Positions 6,438 to 56,792 of a stretch of 64,000 bases of DNA are shown piece by piece. Made by a program: the position numbers and the translations under genes. Each line of letters opens with the position of its first letter. The first letter of the stretch is position 1. This stretch comes from Guptibacillus hwajinpoensis. Its GTDB lineage: Bacteria; Bacillota; Bacilli; Bacillales; Guptibacillaceae. The DNA lies in assembly GCF_020171785.1 (NCBI RefSeq), contig NZ_JAIVAE010000003.1:544612-608611 (forward strand), read 5' to 3'. Below the pieces are notes generated by a model. That model saw only the letters and a program-made list of their open reading frames with translations. It had not been told where the DNA came from and searched no databases.

Positions 6438-8330
6438 TTATGCCCTCTTTTGTTTTGCTGGAATCATTTTCTTTGCTTTCTCAGCAATATCATCTGAAGT
6501 TAATCCAATTTCTTTTAATAACTCACTTACACTGCCATGTTCGATATAAGCATCGGGGATTCCCATTCGTTGAATACCACCATGCTGATAGCCACTGTCA
6601 TTAACATATTCTAGAATGGCACTACCAAACCCACCTTGGAGTATAGCTTCTTCAACTGTAAGCATCGGTAACCCTTCTTGCATGAGATCTGCGATCATTT
6701 TCTCATCTAAAGGTTTTATGAAGCGAGCGTTAATCACACGAGCTGAAATACCTTCTTTTTCTAATTTATCCGCAGCACTCAACAGATCTTGTAACGTAGG
6801 GCCAAATGACAAGAGAGCAATATCCGTACCTTCACGAATAACTTCCCAACTACCAATTTGAATTTCTTTTAATTCTTGATCCATCTTTGTACCAATCCCG
6901 TTCCCTCTAGGATAGCGTACAGCAATTGGTCCCTGATTGTACTTCAAACTAGTATAAACCATATGCTGCAATTCATTCTCGTCTTTCGCCATCATAAGAA
7001 CCATATTAGGTAAGTGTCTAAGGAATGAGATATCGAAAACACCTTGGTGCGTTTCACCATCTGCTCCTACAAGTCCGGAACGATCAATCGCTAGGAAAAC
7101 ATTCAAGTTTTGTCGGCAAACGTCATGAACAAGCTGATCATAAGCTCTTTGAAGAAACGTAGAATAAATCGATAAAACCGGTTTTAATTCCTGAGTTGCA
7201 AGTCCTGCAGCCATTGTAGTAGCATGTTGCTCAGCTATACCAACGTCAAAAAGCCTTTCTGGGAATTGTTTTTCAAATGCTTCCCACTTAGAGCCTACTG
7301 TCATTGCTGGTGTGATGACTGAGATGCGATCGTCCTTCTCTGCAAGCTTTCGCACTGTTTCACTAACGACCTTACTATATCCAGGCGCTGCGACCTTCGG
7401 TTTAATTTGTTCACCTGCTTCAATCTTATAAGGACTCACACCGTGCCAAACGCCAATCTGATCGCTTTCTGCGGGTTGATAGCCTTTTCCTTTTTTCGTA
7501 AGTACGTGAATAAGGACCGGTCCTTTTGTCTTCTTAGCATATTTAATGTTTTCCATTAACGCTTCAACGTCATGACCGTCGACTGGTCCAAGATAGGTAA
7601 AACCAAGCTCCTCAAAGAAAATCCCTGAAACCAACAAATATTTCAACGCATCTTTCACGCGCTCAGCGGTTGAAGCTAGCGCTCCGCCAAACGCAGGAAT
7701 TTTTTTAAGTAAATACTCAAGTTCATCTTTTGCTTTATGATATTTCCCAGCTGTGCGGAGCTTTCCTAAAATATTATGAAGAGCACCTACATTTGGAGCA
7801 ATAGACATTTCATTGTCATTTAAGATAACGAGCATATCTTTTTGTTCGTGTCCGATATGATTAAGAGCTTCAAGTGCCATCCCACCTGTAAGAGCCCCAT
7901 CTCCAATAATCGCAACTACACTTTCGTCAGAGCCTTTCATATCTCGAGCAGCCGCCATCCCCATTGCTGCTGATAATGAGGTAGAGCTGTGCCCAGTTTC
8001 CCAGACGTCATGCTCACTTTCATTTCGTTTTGGAAAACCACAAAGACCTTTATATTTACGTAGCGTATCAAATCTCGAAGCTCGTCCAGTGAGAATTTTA
8101 TGGACATAAGCCTGATGGCCAACATCCCAAATAAATTTATCTTTTGGGCTATCATAAATTTTATGAAGCACGATTGTAAGTTCTACTACGCCAAGATTAG
8201 GCCCAAGATGTCCACCAGTTTCGGATAGTTTATTAATTAAAAAGCTTCTAATCTCTTCAGCAAGCTCGGTCATATCGTTCATATCATAATTCTTTAGAAA
8301 CTTAGGATTCTCAATCTTTTCTAAATCCAT
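6438..8330 (-). CDS. dxs: 1-deoxy-D-xylulose-5-phosphate synthase
   Basis: First enzyme of the MEP isoprenoid pathway: it condenses pyruvate and glyceraldehyde 3-phosphate using thiamine diphosphate. The 630-residue length is normal. Visible motifs are GHLGPNLG near residue 40, the ThDP-binding [15 protein letters not shown] near 145-160, and the transketolase domain [15 protein letters not shown] with the catalytic Glu. It begins 18 nt after oapA, with which it probably forms a transcription unit, and follows the OLE RNA locus, the arrangement reported for OLE-containing bacteria. Confidence 0.97.
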
Positions 8331-8348: not shown

Positions 8349-8957
8349 TTATTTCGATTTACGGTTTCCCTTTTTCTTTTTGGATTGTTTGTCCACCATC
8401 TTGATCTTAAATGTTTTTTCTACATAGTATAAAAATCTACCTACTTGAAAGATGATACCTGTAGAAAAGTGGATGGCAAACGTTTTTCCGAGCGCTTTTC
8501 CTCCAACCGTTAACGCAGCAATGACGCTTGTAAATACTACTGATATTATATATTGAAACAAAGATCCATCGCTATGTCCAAGCTGAAGTGTTAATTGGAC
8601 GACAACGGTTGCAGAGGCTGTACCGCTTATAATACCCGATATATCACCAATTACATCATTACAGAAGCTTGCTACACGATCTGCGTTACGTGTCACAAAG
8701 ATCGCATGTTTCGCACCAGTAAGACGTTCTGCTGCCATCGCATGAAATGGCACTTCGTTTGCGGCAGTAGAAGCTACCCCAATTGTATCAAAGAATATCC
8801 CAATTAGAACGATCAACAGAACCACAATCATACCAATTGCCCATGAAACTCCACTTAATACCGCTGTTGATATAATTGAAAAAATAGCCGCTAACACAAG
8901 TGTGATAACGGCAATAGCTAAACTCCAGTTTATGGATTTTGATACGGAAGCTTTCAT
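8349..8957 (-). CDS. oapA: OapA, OLE-associated membrane protein
   Basis: A 202-residue integral membrane protein with hydrophobic helices near residues 12-34, 38-57 and 110-150, and a lysine-rich tail (KQSKKKKGNRKSK). Adjacent conserved motifs are GIFFDTIGVASTAANEVPFHAM and KHAIFVTRNADRVASFCNDVIGDI. By position between the OLE RNA and dxs, by size and by topology it is the DUF21-related OLE-associated protein OapA, which in Halalkalibacterium halodurans binds OLE RNA and brings it to the membrane. AAGGAG lies 5 nt before the ATG. A possible promoter lies in the short leader after the OLE terminator. The molecular activity of the complex is unknown. Confidence 0.9.
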   Translation of the reverse strand: MKASVSKSINWSLAIAVITLVLAAIFSIISTAVLSGVSWAIGMIVVLLIVLIGIFFDTIGVASTAANEVPFHAMAAERLTGAKHAIFVTRNADRVASFCNDVIGDISGIISGTASATVVVQLTLQLGHSDGSLFQYIISVVFTSVIAALTVGGKALGKTFAIHFSTGIIFQVGRFLYYVEKTFKIKMVDKQSKKKKGNRKSK

Positions 8958-8972
8958 ATCTACTCCTTGTCC

Positions 8973-9003
8973 ATTATATAATCACATAAAAATAAGTATC
9001 CAA
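8973..9003 (-). promoter_or_regulatory. Candidate promoter for oapA-dxs
   Basis: On the minus strand TTGGAT (9003-8998) is followed after 17 nt by TATATA, or after 19 nt by TATAAT (8978-8973), just before the oapA start. The -35 overlaps the OLE terminator stem. It would let oapA-dxs be expressed independently of OLE read-through. Confidence 0.4.
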
Positions 9004-9059
9004 CTAACAGGACATCAAGGGGTCAGTTCGTTTCCCCCTGTTCCCTGTCAGTTGAATAC
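8988..9059 (-). terminator. OLE RNA 3'-terminal hairpin / intrinsic terminator
   Basis: A perfect 16-bp stem (arms 9044-9059 and 8996-9011, including G-U pairs on the minus strand) continues into an inner GGGG/CCCC stem. It is followed by TTATTTTTA on the minus strand. It marks the likely 3' end of the OLE RNA. Confidence 0.8.
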
Positions 9060-9683
9060 CCCTGTTGTATTATGTATCGCAGAGTGGTCACTTAAAGAGT
9101 AAAGACTGCGGCTTAGGTCCAGTAGGTTTTCCCAGATTGATACCTCAACGTCGCCGTTCAGGCGGTTTCCCTTTACATCAATCTTAGCGTAGTCACCAGG
9201 CGCTAGACTGGATTACCACTTAGTCCGCACTATAATCCCCTTTAAGTGTCACTCGGAACAGTCTAGGAGTTTTCCTCAACAGTTCCACACATTTCCTAGC
9301 CTCTTTTGCAGAGCAGATTTCATATGGGTGGTAGGAAAAAAGCGGCCGGCCGAGCTGCAAATTTCCAATAATCCATAATCCCCTCTAGCTCCACTCAAGG
9401 CAGGCTACGCTGTTCAACTGCGTTCCCATGCAGCTGCAACAGGTTCATACCCCAATTCATAGCAGGCAGCGTTAACCGCTCTGCTACAAGAATGGGCCTC
9501 CGCGGAAGCAGGGTCAACGCCCACATGCCTTTGTGGATCGCCCTGCGACCTTAACTCCCAGCATCGACCCAAGTCTGGGCGACTCAAGCCAACACCAGGA
9601 ACTTCATCGATGTGCCCTATGGCGGATTTTTAGGCCCGCCTTCAGAAATGGCGAACTGACTAGAATACTGCACCACTCAGTCT
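8988..9683 (-). ncRNA. ole: OLE RNA (ornate, large, extremophilic RNA)
   Basis: About 700 nt without a convincing reading frame lie between ispA and oapA-dxs, the exact position reported for OLE RNA, and the size fits the roughly 600-nt family. The stretch is richer in G+C than its flanks and full of self-complementarity. Examples on the plus strand are CTAGACTG (9203-9210) with CAGTCTAG (9259-9266), enclosing CACTTA (9217-9222) with TAAGTG (9243-9248); CAGGG (9509-9513) with CCCTG (9541-9545), enclosing CCACA with TGTGG; and the terminal 16-bp stem. It has its own promoter and terminator. Known OLE RNAs bind OapA at the membrane and OapB and OapC, and affect tolerance of cold, alcohols and metal-ion stress. 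I call it by synteny, size, structure density and the oapA gene; a covariance-model search would be decisive. Confidence 0.9.
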
Positions 9684-9689
9684 TAATTT

Positions 9690-9718
9690 ATTATACCACA
9701 CATTCATTTTATGCTCAA
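9690..9718 (-). promoter_or_regulatory. Extended -10 SigA promoter of OLE RNA
   Basis: On the minus strand TTGAGC (9718-9713), a 17-nt spacer and TATAAT (9695-9690) preceded by TGG form a strong extended -10 promoter. It begins 8 nt after the ispA stop codon, and transcription should start near 9683. Confidence 0.8.
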
Positions 9719-9725
9719 TTATGTG

Positions 9726-10607
9726 TTAGTGGTCCCGCTCTACAATAAATTTCGCAATAGATTGTAACGTGTCCTTTTCTACGTTAGCAGCAGTTAGATG
9801 GGCTAATCCCTCTTTAAAATGATGATTAAGTTTTTCTTTTGCTCCGTCTAGTGTGAGAAGCTTTGGATAAGTACTTTTTTCGTTCGTTTCATCACTACCA
9901 GGAAGTTTTCCAATCTTTCCTTCTTCTCCTTCAACGTCAAGAATATCATCGCTAATTTGGAAGGAAAGGCCTATATGTTCGCCAAAAGCACGTAGATGTT
10001 CACGTTGATGACTTGTTGCATGACCAATTATTGCCCCAGCCATAATAGAAAATACAAGAAGTTTTCCTGTTTTATGATGATGAATGTATTCAAGTTGTTC
10101 TAGCGTTAATTCTTGTTTCTCCCCGTCTAAATCCGCCATTTGTCCTCCTACCATTCCGGAAGGGCCAGCAGCGTGAGATAATAATTTAATCAAGTCAACT
10201 TTTTGTTCACTTGTTAAATTGGAATCTGCAATAAGTTCAAAGCTTTGGGTTAAAAGCGCATCCCCAGCAAGAATCGCAGTTGCCTCTCCAAAAACGATAT
10301 GATTTGTTGGTTTACCTCGACGTAAATCGTCATCATCCATTGCAGGCAAGTCATCATGAATCAATGAGTACGTGTGAATCATCTCAACCGCACACGCCAC
10401 CGGAATGGCTTCTTTAATAGAATGACCAAATGCTTCTACGGTAGCGAGCATTAATATTGGACGAATGCGTTTTCCACCTGCGTGAATGGAATACAACATC
10501 GCATCCTTCAATGATTCCGGCATCTCCAAGCGGTCAATGTATGCGGGAAGTTCTTCATCCAACAGTTTCTTACATTCGTTCATATAGGAACTGAGATCTG
10601 AAGTCAC
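9726..10607 (-). CDS. ispA: Farnesyl/geranyl diphosphate synthase
   Basis: A 293-residue trans-prenyltransferase that condenses IPP with DMAPP and GPP. The first aspartate-rich motif is [15 protein letters not shown], with the extra residues typical of bacterial short-chain (FPP) synthases. The second is SDDILD, with the SFQI segment before it. The family GGKRIRP motif is present near residue 45. ATG overlaps the xseB stop codon by 4 nt (translational coupling). The OLE promoter begins directly after its stop codon. Confidence 0.96.
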
Positions 10608-38123: not shown

Positions 38124-38290
38124 CTTTTGACCTGAAAGTTTCTCCTCACATCAAAGTGCGAGGATTACATCTTTGGCGGCTTAAAGAAGCTCTCTCCAGA
38201 GGTGCGTCTAACAAGAGTCTTTTTGCCTGAGAGATTCACAACTTTGCTTGCTCCTTCGGCGCTGCATCTAGCAGTCTCTCCTCTTGCCTT
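38077..38290 (-). promoter_or_regulatory. Tandem glycine riboswitch of gcvT-PA-PB
   Basis: On the minus strand the sequence carries two glycine aptamers. The first has GGAGAGAC, CGCCGAAGGAGCAAGC and AATCTCTCAGGCAAAAAGAC. The second has CTCTGGAGAGAG, GCCGCCAAAGATG and ACTTTCAGGTCAAAAGGACAGAG. A terminator follows immediately, so this is probably an ON switch that lets gcv be read when glycine is high. Confidence 0.93.
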
Positions 38291-38335
38291 CATTCGCTTA
38301 TTTTCAGTTTTAAGGTATTGGATTGTACGGATTGA

Positions 38336-56618: not shown

Positions 56619-56735
56619 GTATAAAAACACCGCTACCGACTTCCCTACGCTGGTATCAACCAGATCAGGTTCAAGGGTAAAAGAAATAACGGTTTCTTTT
56701 TCTCAGCCTTCCCTAACTTGAAGGCACCCCTAGTC
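56619..56735 (-). promoter_or_regulatory. TPP riboswitch aptamer of the thi operon
   Basis: On the minus strand the conserved thi-box segments are in order: GGGGTGCCT, GGCTGAGA, ACCCTTGAACCTGATCTGGTTGATACCAGCGTAGGGAAG (split by P4/P5), ending in AGCGGTG-like pairing. The terminator just after it indicates an OFF switch at the level of transcription. Confidence 0.95.
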
Positions 56736-56792
56736 TCAGAAAATATGAAATTACTTTTATTATGACAAAAAAGCTCTTAGAGTTCAAGCTCA

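What the first reader, a model, noticed from the sequence alone, without database searches (positions are those of the whole stretch)
8988..9683. OLE ribonucleoprotein locus between ispA and dxs
A gene-free, structure-rich stretch of about 700 nt sits exactly where OLE RNA is known to lie, followed by oapA and dxs. I see multiple inverted repeats, a private promoter and a terminator. OLE is one of the largest bacterial structured RNAs with no clear biochemical function, so a new natural variant is valuable.
Basis: partly seen in the sequence, partly recalled or inferred. Interest (0 to 1): 0.95.

Follow-up and report, generated by a model that had tools for sequence, protein, structure and literature searches.

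The report
OLE RNA with EndoA cut site
This stretch is the gene for the large bacterial OLE RNA, and just after it lies a six-letter sequence, shared by most of the close relatives examined, at which the RNA-cutting toxin EndoA (MazF) likely cuts, which would tie this long-mysterious RNA to a toxin-antitoxin system.

Summary
The finding is right. The minus strand of 9692-9068 matches the whole Rfam OLE model (528.9 bits), between ispA and oapA-dxs, in a Pseudalkalibacillus. OapB, OapC and bS21 are in the genome. The RNA itself is an ordinary full-length OLE.

What I add is a motif at the OLE-oapA junction. UACAUA lies 3-40 nt after the OLE core in 72 of 80 oapA loci; it is rare in OLE, in oapA and on the other strand. 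It is again the top hexamer after 130 OLEs of other classes (44 against 2.9 by shuffling). UACAUA is the published site of B. subtilis EndoA/MazF, required last A included. Among 207 further OLE loci it occurs in 50 of 172 with a strong MazF and 1 of 35 without. I infer that EndoA cuts OLE from its tail and from the oapA message. No cleavage was observed. Three searches of open-licence PMC showed no report of this link.

The parts
9726..10607 (-). ispA (farnesyl diphosphate synthase family), gene upstream of ole
   Evidence: Pfam PF00348 and NCBIfam NF045485 above cut-off
9690..9718 (-). ole promoter: TTGAGC (9718-9713), 17 nt, TATAAT (9695-9690) with TG before it; start predicted near 9683
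   Evidence: scan; TTGAG, spacing and TGnTATAAT kept in 14 of 14 genus genomes with a variable spacer
9068..9692 (-). OLE RNA (RF01071), full length
   Evidence: 528.9 bits, E 2.7e-152, model 1-616 of 616
9348..9352 (-). predicted L9.3 loop CGGCC with the palindrome GGCC, candidate self-kissing contact of the OLE dimer
   Evidence: fold of the window's hairpin; palindrome in 136 of 140 parsed OLE loops; contact described in PMC12286853 (passages)
9071..9076 (-). UACAUA, predicted EndoA/MazF cut between U9076 and A9075
   Evidence: position; kept in 14 of 14 genus genomes and in 72 of 80 oapA loci; matches the published EndoA hexamer (PMC11780869, passages)
8995..9060 (-). long interrupted hairpin, likely leaky terminator between OLE and oapA; one copy in the genome
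   Evidence: fold z -4.6; covariation; single copy
8988..8994 (-). UAUUUUU run after the hairpin, predicted transcript end
   Evidence: sequence; a T-run at this place in 14 of 14 genus genomes
8973..9002 (-). weak candidate oapA promoter TGGATA-18-TATAAT
   Evidence: scan, 10 of 12 matches; TATAATGG kept in 12 of 14 aligned sequences; not shown to work
8349..8957 (-). oapA, OLE-associated membrane protein A (202 aa)
   Evidence: 99% identical to Pseudalkalibacillus relatives and 69% to the H. halodurans protein next to ole; no Pfam or NCBIfam match
6438..8330 (-). dxs
   Evidence: TIGR00204, 943 bits
5625..6431 (-). tlyA
   Evidence: TIGR00478, 290 bits
5018..5467 (-). argR
   Evidence: PF01316 and PF02863

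Best explanation
The window carries a full-length OLE RNA gene (minus strand, Rfam extent 9692-9068) and, at 9076-9071, the hexamer UACAUA, where the endoribonuclease EndoA/MazF is predicted to cut, which would free the OLE core from its tail and from the oapA message. Shown by sequence: the OLE match, the conserved promoter motif, the covarying hairpin with a U-run, the gene order, the partner genes, the hexamer and its conservation, and an EndoA gene in the same genome. Inferred: RNA polymerase starts near 9683; most transcripts likely stop at the hairpin (about 696 nt) and some read through into oapA-dxs. When stress frees EndoA from its antitoxin, it would cut between U9076 and A9075 and leave an OLE of about 608 nt whose 3' end is likely guarded by the terminal stem. 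In read-through transcripts the same cut would part OLE from the oapA-dxs message and so change the ratio of RNA to membrane anchor. Which of the two, trimming or uncoupling, matters more is not decided.
For: OLE identity. TACATA is the commonest hexamer of the OLE-oapA linker, in 72 of 80 loci, against 5 OLE sequences (all starting within the first 7 nt) and 3 of the 80 oapA stretches (first 600 nt); the base after TACAT is A in 76 of 80 linker sites, 5 of 22 OLE sites and 3 of 43 oapA sites. It is strand-specific: reverse complement in 2 of 80 and 2 of 130 linkers; 13.7 per kb in linkers, 0.31 per kb in the rest of the loci outside OLE. Replicated in 130 OLE loci of other classes: top hexamer, 44 of 130, shuffles mean 2.94, maximum 8. 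B. subtilis EndoA is reported to cut only UACAU followed by A (PMC11780869, passages), and Symbiobacterium MazF prefers UACAUA (PMC10893535, passages). The genome has a 116-aa EndoA matching solved EndoA chains over its whole length. Site presence goes with MazF: 50 of 172 against 1 of 35, Fisher 4e-4; with A+T in the model 4e-4; one locus per family median p 0.039. In 29 OLE-less genomes no TACATA lies in the last 110 nt before dxs.
Against: No cleavage was observed here. In B. subtilis the EndoA cuts appeared in exonuclease-deficient strains and not in wild type. 8 of 80 linkers lack the hexamer although all 8 genomes have a strong MazF; 156 of 207 further loci lack it, and 69 of 100 families. 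With the laxer MazF cut-off the tie is weaker (50 of 182 against 1 of 25, p 0.011; per family 0.067); the cut-offs were set after seeing the data, and the first 130 loci alone gave p 0.063. One locus without a good MazF (L209) has the site. Predicted openness is moderate: mean unpaired probability 0.60 against 0.46 for the whole linker, only 25 of 72 sites above 0.7, and 0.12 in H. halodurans and 0.09-0.33 in three of the window's closest relatives. Avoidance of the hexamer inside OLE is not beyond chance: 8 of 60 letter permutations are as rare. The published H. halodurans full-length construct (1-637) runs 13 nt past the hexamer, so the standard RNA may keep it.
Confidence: 0.55

Rival explanations
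1. UACAUA is a binding element in the OLE 3' tail for another protein or RNA: a conserved linear motif of the RNP, whose match to the EndoA site is a coincidence.
For: The hexamer lies inside the published 637-nt H. halodurans construct. All 8 genomes that lack it in the first set still have a strong MazF.
Against: The match includes the sixth letter that EndoA requires, the site goes with MazF in other classes, and its distance from the core varies from 3 to 40 nt.
Confidence: 0.2
2. OLE is a decoy: an abundant RNA with one exposed UACAUA soaks up free EndoA and so buffers the toxin, and the cut itself matters little for OLE.
For: OLE is described as one of the most abundant RNAs in H. halodurans (PMC12265935 and PMC9723947); the OLE core itself lacks the hexamer in 80 of 80 loci once the first 12 nt are left out.
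Against: The site sits at one defined junction rather than anywhere in the RNA, and a decoy would need it open, which the fold predicts only in part.
Confidence: 0.1
3. An ordinary OLE gene: the hexamer is a shared-ancestry relic of the linker with no role.
For: Many of the 80 loci are close relatives, and many families lack the hexamer altogether.
Against: In the window's genus the letters around the hexamer change while it stays, 14 of 14. It recurs in 31 of 100 families outside the first set and far above shuffles.
Confidence: 0.13

Closest known systems
OLE RNA of Halalkalibacterium halodurans (Rfam RF01071)
   Same: Full-length fold, own promoter, oapA directly downstream, partners OapA, OapB, OapC and bS21, L9.3 palindrome; UACAUA also present there, at 619-624 of the published 637-nt construct
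   Different: Here a covarying terminator-like hairpin separates OLE from oapA; the H. halodurans linker folds only weakly (-10.3 kcal/mol). Published work seen describes presumed processing without naming a nuclease at this site
EndoA/NdoA (MazF) target sites of Bacillus subtilis
   Same: Exact hexamer UACAUA with the required last A; EndoA-like enzyme in the genome
   Different: The targets named in the passages I read are mRNAs; here the site marks the end of a structured noncoding RNA
MpfA-type Mg2+ exporters (CNNM-CBS-CorC)
   Same: Reported as weakly homologous to OapA and as anticorrelated with OLE (PMC11332333)
   Different: This genome has OLE and two such proteins, more than the 'no more than one' described as typical for OLE genomes

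Membership tests
OLE RNA (RF01071) | Covariance-model score above the gathering score over the full model | tested here: met
   528.9 bits against 50, 616 of 616 positions
OLE RNA (RF01071) | oapA directly downstream | tested here: met
   OapA 8349-8957, 69% identical to the H. halodurans protein at its ole locus
OLE RNA (RF01071) | Partner genes OapB, OapC and bS21 in the genome | tested here: met
   OapB E 8.6e-38 to 7k9b; OapC/YbxF E 1.5e-26 to 4lck; bS21 PF01165
OLE RNA (RF01071) | Palindromic L9.3 loop for dimer contact | tested here: met
   GGCC in the predicted loop of the window's RNA
OLE RNA (RF01071) | Abundant membrane-bound RNA with stress phenotypes | not testable with these tools
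   Needs northern blot, localisation and knock-out
EndoA/MazF target | Hexamer UACAUA | tested here: met
   9076-9071 minus; conserved
EndoA/MazF target | UACAU-type EndoA in the same genome | tested here: met
   116 aa, E about 1e-66 to chains named EndoA, 4me7 and 4mdx; its specificity is inferred from that similarity
EndoA/MazF target | Site single-stranded | tested here: inconclusive
   mean unpaired probability 0.60 over 72 loci, 0.09-0.33 in three of the window's closest relatives; the window's own RNA was not among those computed
EndoA/MazF target | Cut observed, and lost without the enzyme | not testable with these tools
   Needs RNA-end data with and without ndoA

The most novel reading that the evidence does not exclude
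OLE RNA is a built-in target of the MazEF toxin-antitoxin system in much of its range: EndoA, released by stress, cuts at a conserved UACAUA just after the OLE core, which switches the particle by freeing OLE from its tail and from the oapA-dxs message and links the bacterial 'bTOR' RNA to stress sensing by a toxin.
Probability: 0.45. Interest if true: 0.9.

Novelty: new variant of a known kind. Interest (0 to 1): 0.72.

Why it matters
What OLE does biochemically, and how the cell engages it under ethanol, cold or Mg2+ stress, has been open for nearly 20 years (PMC11332333). A conserved cut site for a toxin nuclease gives a concrete upstream signal and a one-base experiment (UACAUA to UACAUG). 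It would also give MazF, whose physiological role is described as debated (PMC6562991, passages), a conserved noncoding target. The RNA core in this window adds little by itself; the junction is what is new.

Tried and rejected
A mobile repeat as the source of the hairpin: rejected, one copy in the genome. OLE in phages or viruses: no match in 50,697 phage records and none for one conserved OLE pattern in viral contigs (one of 8 possible scans). UACAUA as a promoter element or DNA site: judged unlikely, because it is strand-specific and at variable distance from oapA. A second cut site before OLE as a rule: not supported. UACAU lies within 60 nt upstream in 11 of 62 anchored loci (18 of 80 were not anchored), TACATA starts within the first 7 nt of 5 OLE sequences and is in 5 of 129 5' flanks of the second set. 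Avoidance of the hexamer inside OLE: below mononucleotide shuffles but not beyond the permutation control, so not claimed. MazF absence as the reason for missing sites in Bacillaceae: rejected, 51 of 51 genomes tested have a strong match (50 of the 80 named loci plus the window's own genome, because a call takes at most 50 such loci). MazF E-value as a graded predictor in the 130 set: no difference (Mann-Whitney p 0.27). An oapA relic upstream of dxs in OLE-less genomes: suspected in L341 by eye, not supported by tblastn (one weak match in L345 inside the dxs side of the locus). Pairing of the site with a downstream UAUGUG in read-through RNA of the window's genus: seen in folds, kept only as an idea.

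Full report
What is there. The minus strand of window 9692-9068 is an OLE RNA. Rfam RF01071 matches over all 616 model positions with 528.9 bits, and the genome has a single copy. The gene order is ispA, ole, oapA, dxs, tlyA, argR. OapA has no Pfam or NCBIfam match, but it is 99% identical to proteins of Pseudalkalibacillus spartinae and P. hwajinpoensis and 69% identical to that of Halalkalibacterium halodurans, so the window is from a Pseudalkalibacillus of that group. One search returned the best 80 of 339 oapA relatives; 80 of 80 have an OLE upstream. 15 of 15 genomes of the family have OLE.

Promoter and terminator. The scan gives TTGAGC, 17 nt, TATAAT with TG before it, on the minus strand. 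In 14 of 14 genus genomes TTGAG, the 17-nt spacing and TGnTATAAT are kept while the spacer letters change. After the core, a hairpin of 18 outer and 7 inner pairs is followed by UAUUUUU. A T-run at this place is in 14 of 14 genus genomes; the sister-genus genome L092 has a short linker without the hairpin. On 14 aligned sequences (13 distinct) 91% of cells pair, 4 pairs change on both sides, and the covariation score was reached by 0 of 500 shuffles. I read it as a terminator that lets some polymerase through; that is inference.

Partners and dimer. OapB (L086:1703-2023, minus) matches the solved OLE-associated protein B (E 8.6e-38). OapC (L085:1495-1758, minus) matches solved YbxF. bS21 is present. 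The predicted L9.3 loop carries GGCC, the palindrome of the self-kissing contact described in PMC12286853 (passages). Of 210 OLE RNAs my pattern parsed 140 (68 failed the pattern, 2 gave no loop); 136 of 140 have a palindromic 4-mer in that loop, against 58.3 by shuffling the loops. The core is therefore an ordinary full-length OLE.

The unexpected part. While reading the linkers between OLE and oapA I saw one word again and again, TACATA. In the 80 loci it is the commonest hexamer of the linker, in 72. It is in 5 OLE sequences (all starting within the first 7 nt) and in 3 of the 80 oapA stretches (first 600 nt). The letter after TACAT is A in 76 of 80 linker sites, 5 of 22 OLE sites and 3 of 43 oapA sites. 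Its reverse complement is in 2 of 80 linkers; its density is 13.7 per kb in linkers and 0.31 per kb in the rest of the loci outside OLE. For the pentamer TACAT the linkers have 81 sites where dinucleotide shuffles give 14.9; OLE (21 against 22.9), oapA (43 against 55.8) and the dxs side (118 against 124.2) are at or below expectation; the ispA side has 150 against 75.2, which I put down to coding sequence without testing it. The distance from the core is 3 to 40 nt, most often 7. Many of the 80 loci are close relatives, so I looked further afield.

Why EndoA. B. subtilis EndoA (NdoA, MazF) is reported to cut at U/ACAUA, and only where UACAU is followed by A (PMC11780869, passages). Symbiobacterium MazF prefers UACAUA (PMC10893535, passages). 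The window's genome has an EndoA-like protein of 116 aa (L132:1492-1842) that matches chains named EndoA (4me7, 4mdx) over its whole length. The genes before it look like alr and mazE (named by eye, not tested). 51 of 51 genomes tested have a strong MazF match, including the 8 whose linker lacks the hexamer, so that set cannot test co-occurrence.

Replication and co-occurrence. In an even sample of 398 genomes of the phylum, 290 have OLE. I took 130 of the 150 listed best places, so this set leans to high-scoring OLE. TACATA is again the top hexamer in the 60 nt after the core: 44 of 130, shuffles mean 2.94, maximum 8 of 200. Within 48 nt it is 41 of 130, in 23 of 48 families. Of the same 398 genomes 353 have a MazF-family match. 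I then chose 80 further OLE genomes, 19 of them without a MazF match or with only a poor one, and got 77 loci (three genomes with only partial OLE were left out): 10 of 58 with MazF have the site, 0 of 19 without. Together, 50 of 172 loci with MazF at E<1e-33 and 1 of 35 without have it, Fisher 4e-4; with A+T content in the model 4e-4; with one locus per family median p 0.039. With the laxer cut-off 1e-20 it is 50 of 182 against 1 of 25, p 0.011, per family 0.067. The cut-offs were set after seeing the data, and the first 130 loci alone gave p 0.063, with no difference in graded E-value. I call this support, not proof. As a negative control, 29 of 30 OLE-less genomes gave a dxs; 6 of 29 have the word within 200 nt upstream, 0 of 29 within the last 110 nt.

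Mechanism. The predicted cut after U9076 leaves 608 nt from the predicted start. In 72 named loci the same arithmetic gives 588-657 nt. In H. halodurans the hexamer is at 619-624 of the published 637-nt construct, and the RNA is described as about 630 nt, with its own promoter and presumed processing (PMC9723947, passages). So the hexamer sits close to where processing has been presumed, but a 630-nt band does not tell a cut end from an uncut one. The cut would trim terminated OLE, and in read-through RNA it would separate OLE from oapA-dxs. OLE is reported to rise with ethanol and to act in stress, and MazF is discussed as a stress nuclease. This step is inference.

Limits. EndoA cuts in B. 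subtilis appeared in exonuclease-deficient strains and not in wild type. Predicted openness of the site is moderate, and low in H. halodurans and in three of the window's closest relatives. 69 of 100 families sampled showed no site. A Pfam match to MazF does not show its specificity. That the link is unreported rests on three searches of open-licence PMC: 'OLE RNA' with 'MazF' gave one paper on a staphylococcal phage transcriptome, 'OLE RNA' with 'toxin-antitoxin' gave four, and 'UACAUA' gave 28, of which 15 were listed. Of these I saw only the listings, apart from passages of PMC10893535, PMC11780869 and PMC8634880. Subscription papers were not searched, nor were the supplements of the OLE papers, where consensus alignments may show the motif.

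Papers, what I saw: PMC12265935, parts 1 and 2 of 5 of the text; PMC11332333, abstract and parts 1 and 2 of 3 of Results; PMC12054373, abstract, section 6 and passages; PMC12286853, PMC9723947, PMC11780869, PMC6562991, PMC10893535, PMC8634880 and PMC10898510, passages only. That solved chains 4me7 and 4mdx are from B. subtilis is recalled.

Noticed in passing
L088:817-2133:- and L089:781-2064:- (own genome): Two CNNM-CBS-CorC proteins of MpfA architecture in a genome with OLE, where the literature describes typically none or one (PMC11332333).
   Followed up: partly
L082:7983-8647 (NZ_AP023421.1, Pusillibacter faecalis): A full-length OLE (399.8 bits) with a CNNM-domain gene and dxs on a 504-kb plasmid typed as conjugative; no TACATA in the stretch read between it and the next gene.
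   Followed up: partly
L043, L065, L066, L068, L070, first nucleotides of OLE: These five loci carry TACATA at the extreme 5' end of OLE as well, so EndoA could cut on both sides; four are Thalassobacillus.
   Followed up: no
L011, L014, L016 linkers (Fictibacillus): A different 9-bp terminator-like hairpin between OLE and oapA, after TACATA: the same layout with an unrelated hairpin.
   Followed up: no
window 8958-9076, minus: In read-through RNA of several genus members UACAUA can pair with UAUGUG just after the U-run, which could hide the site from EndoA unless transcription ends at the hairpin.
   Followed up: no
window 38205-38293 and 56625-56741, minus: A glycine and a TPP riboswitch above gathering score.
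   Followed up: no
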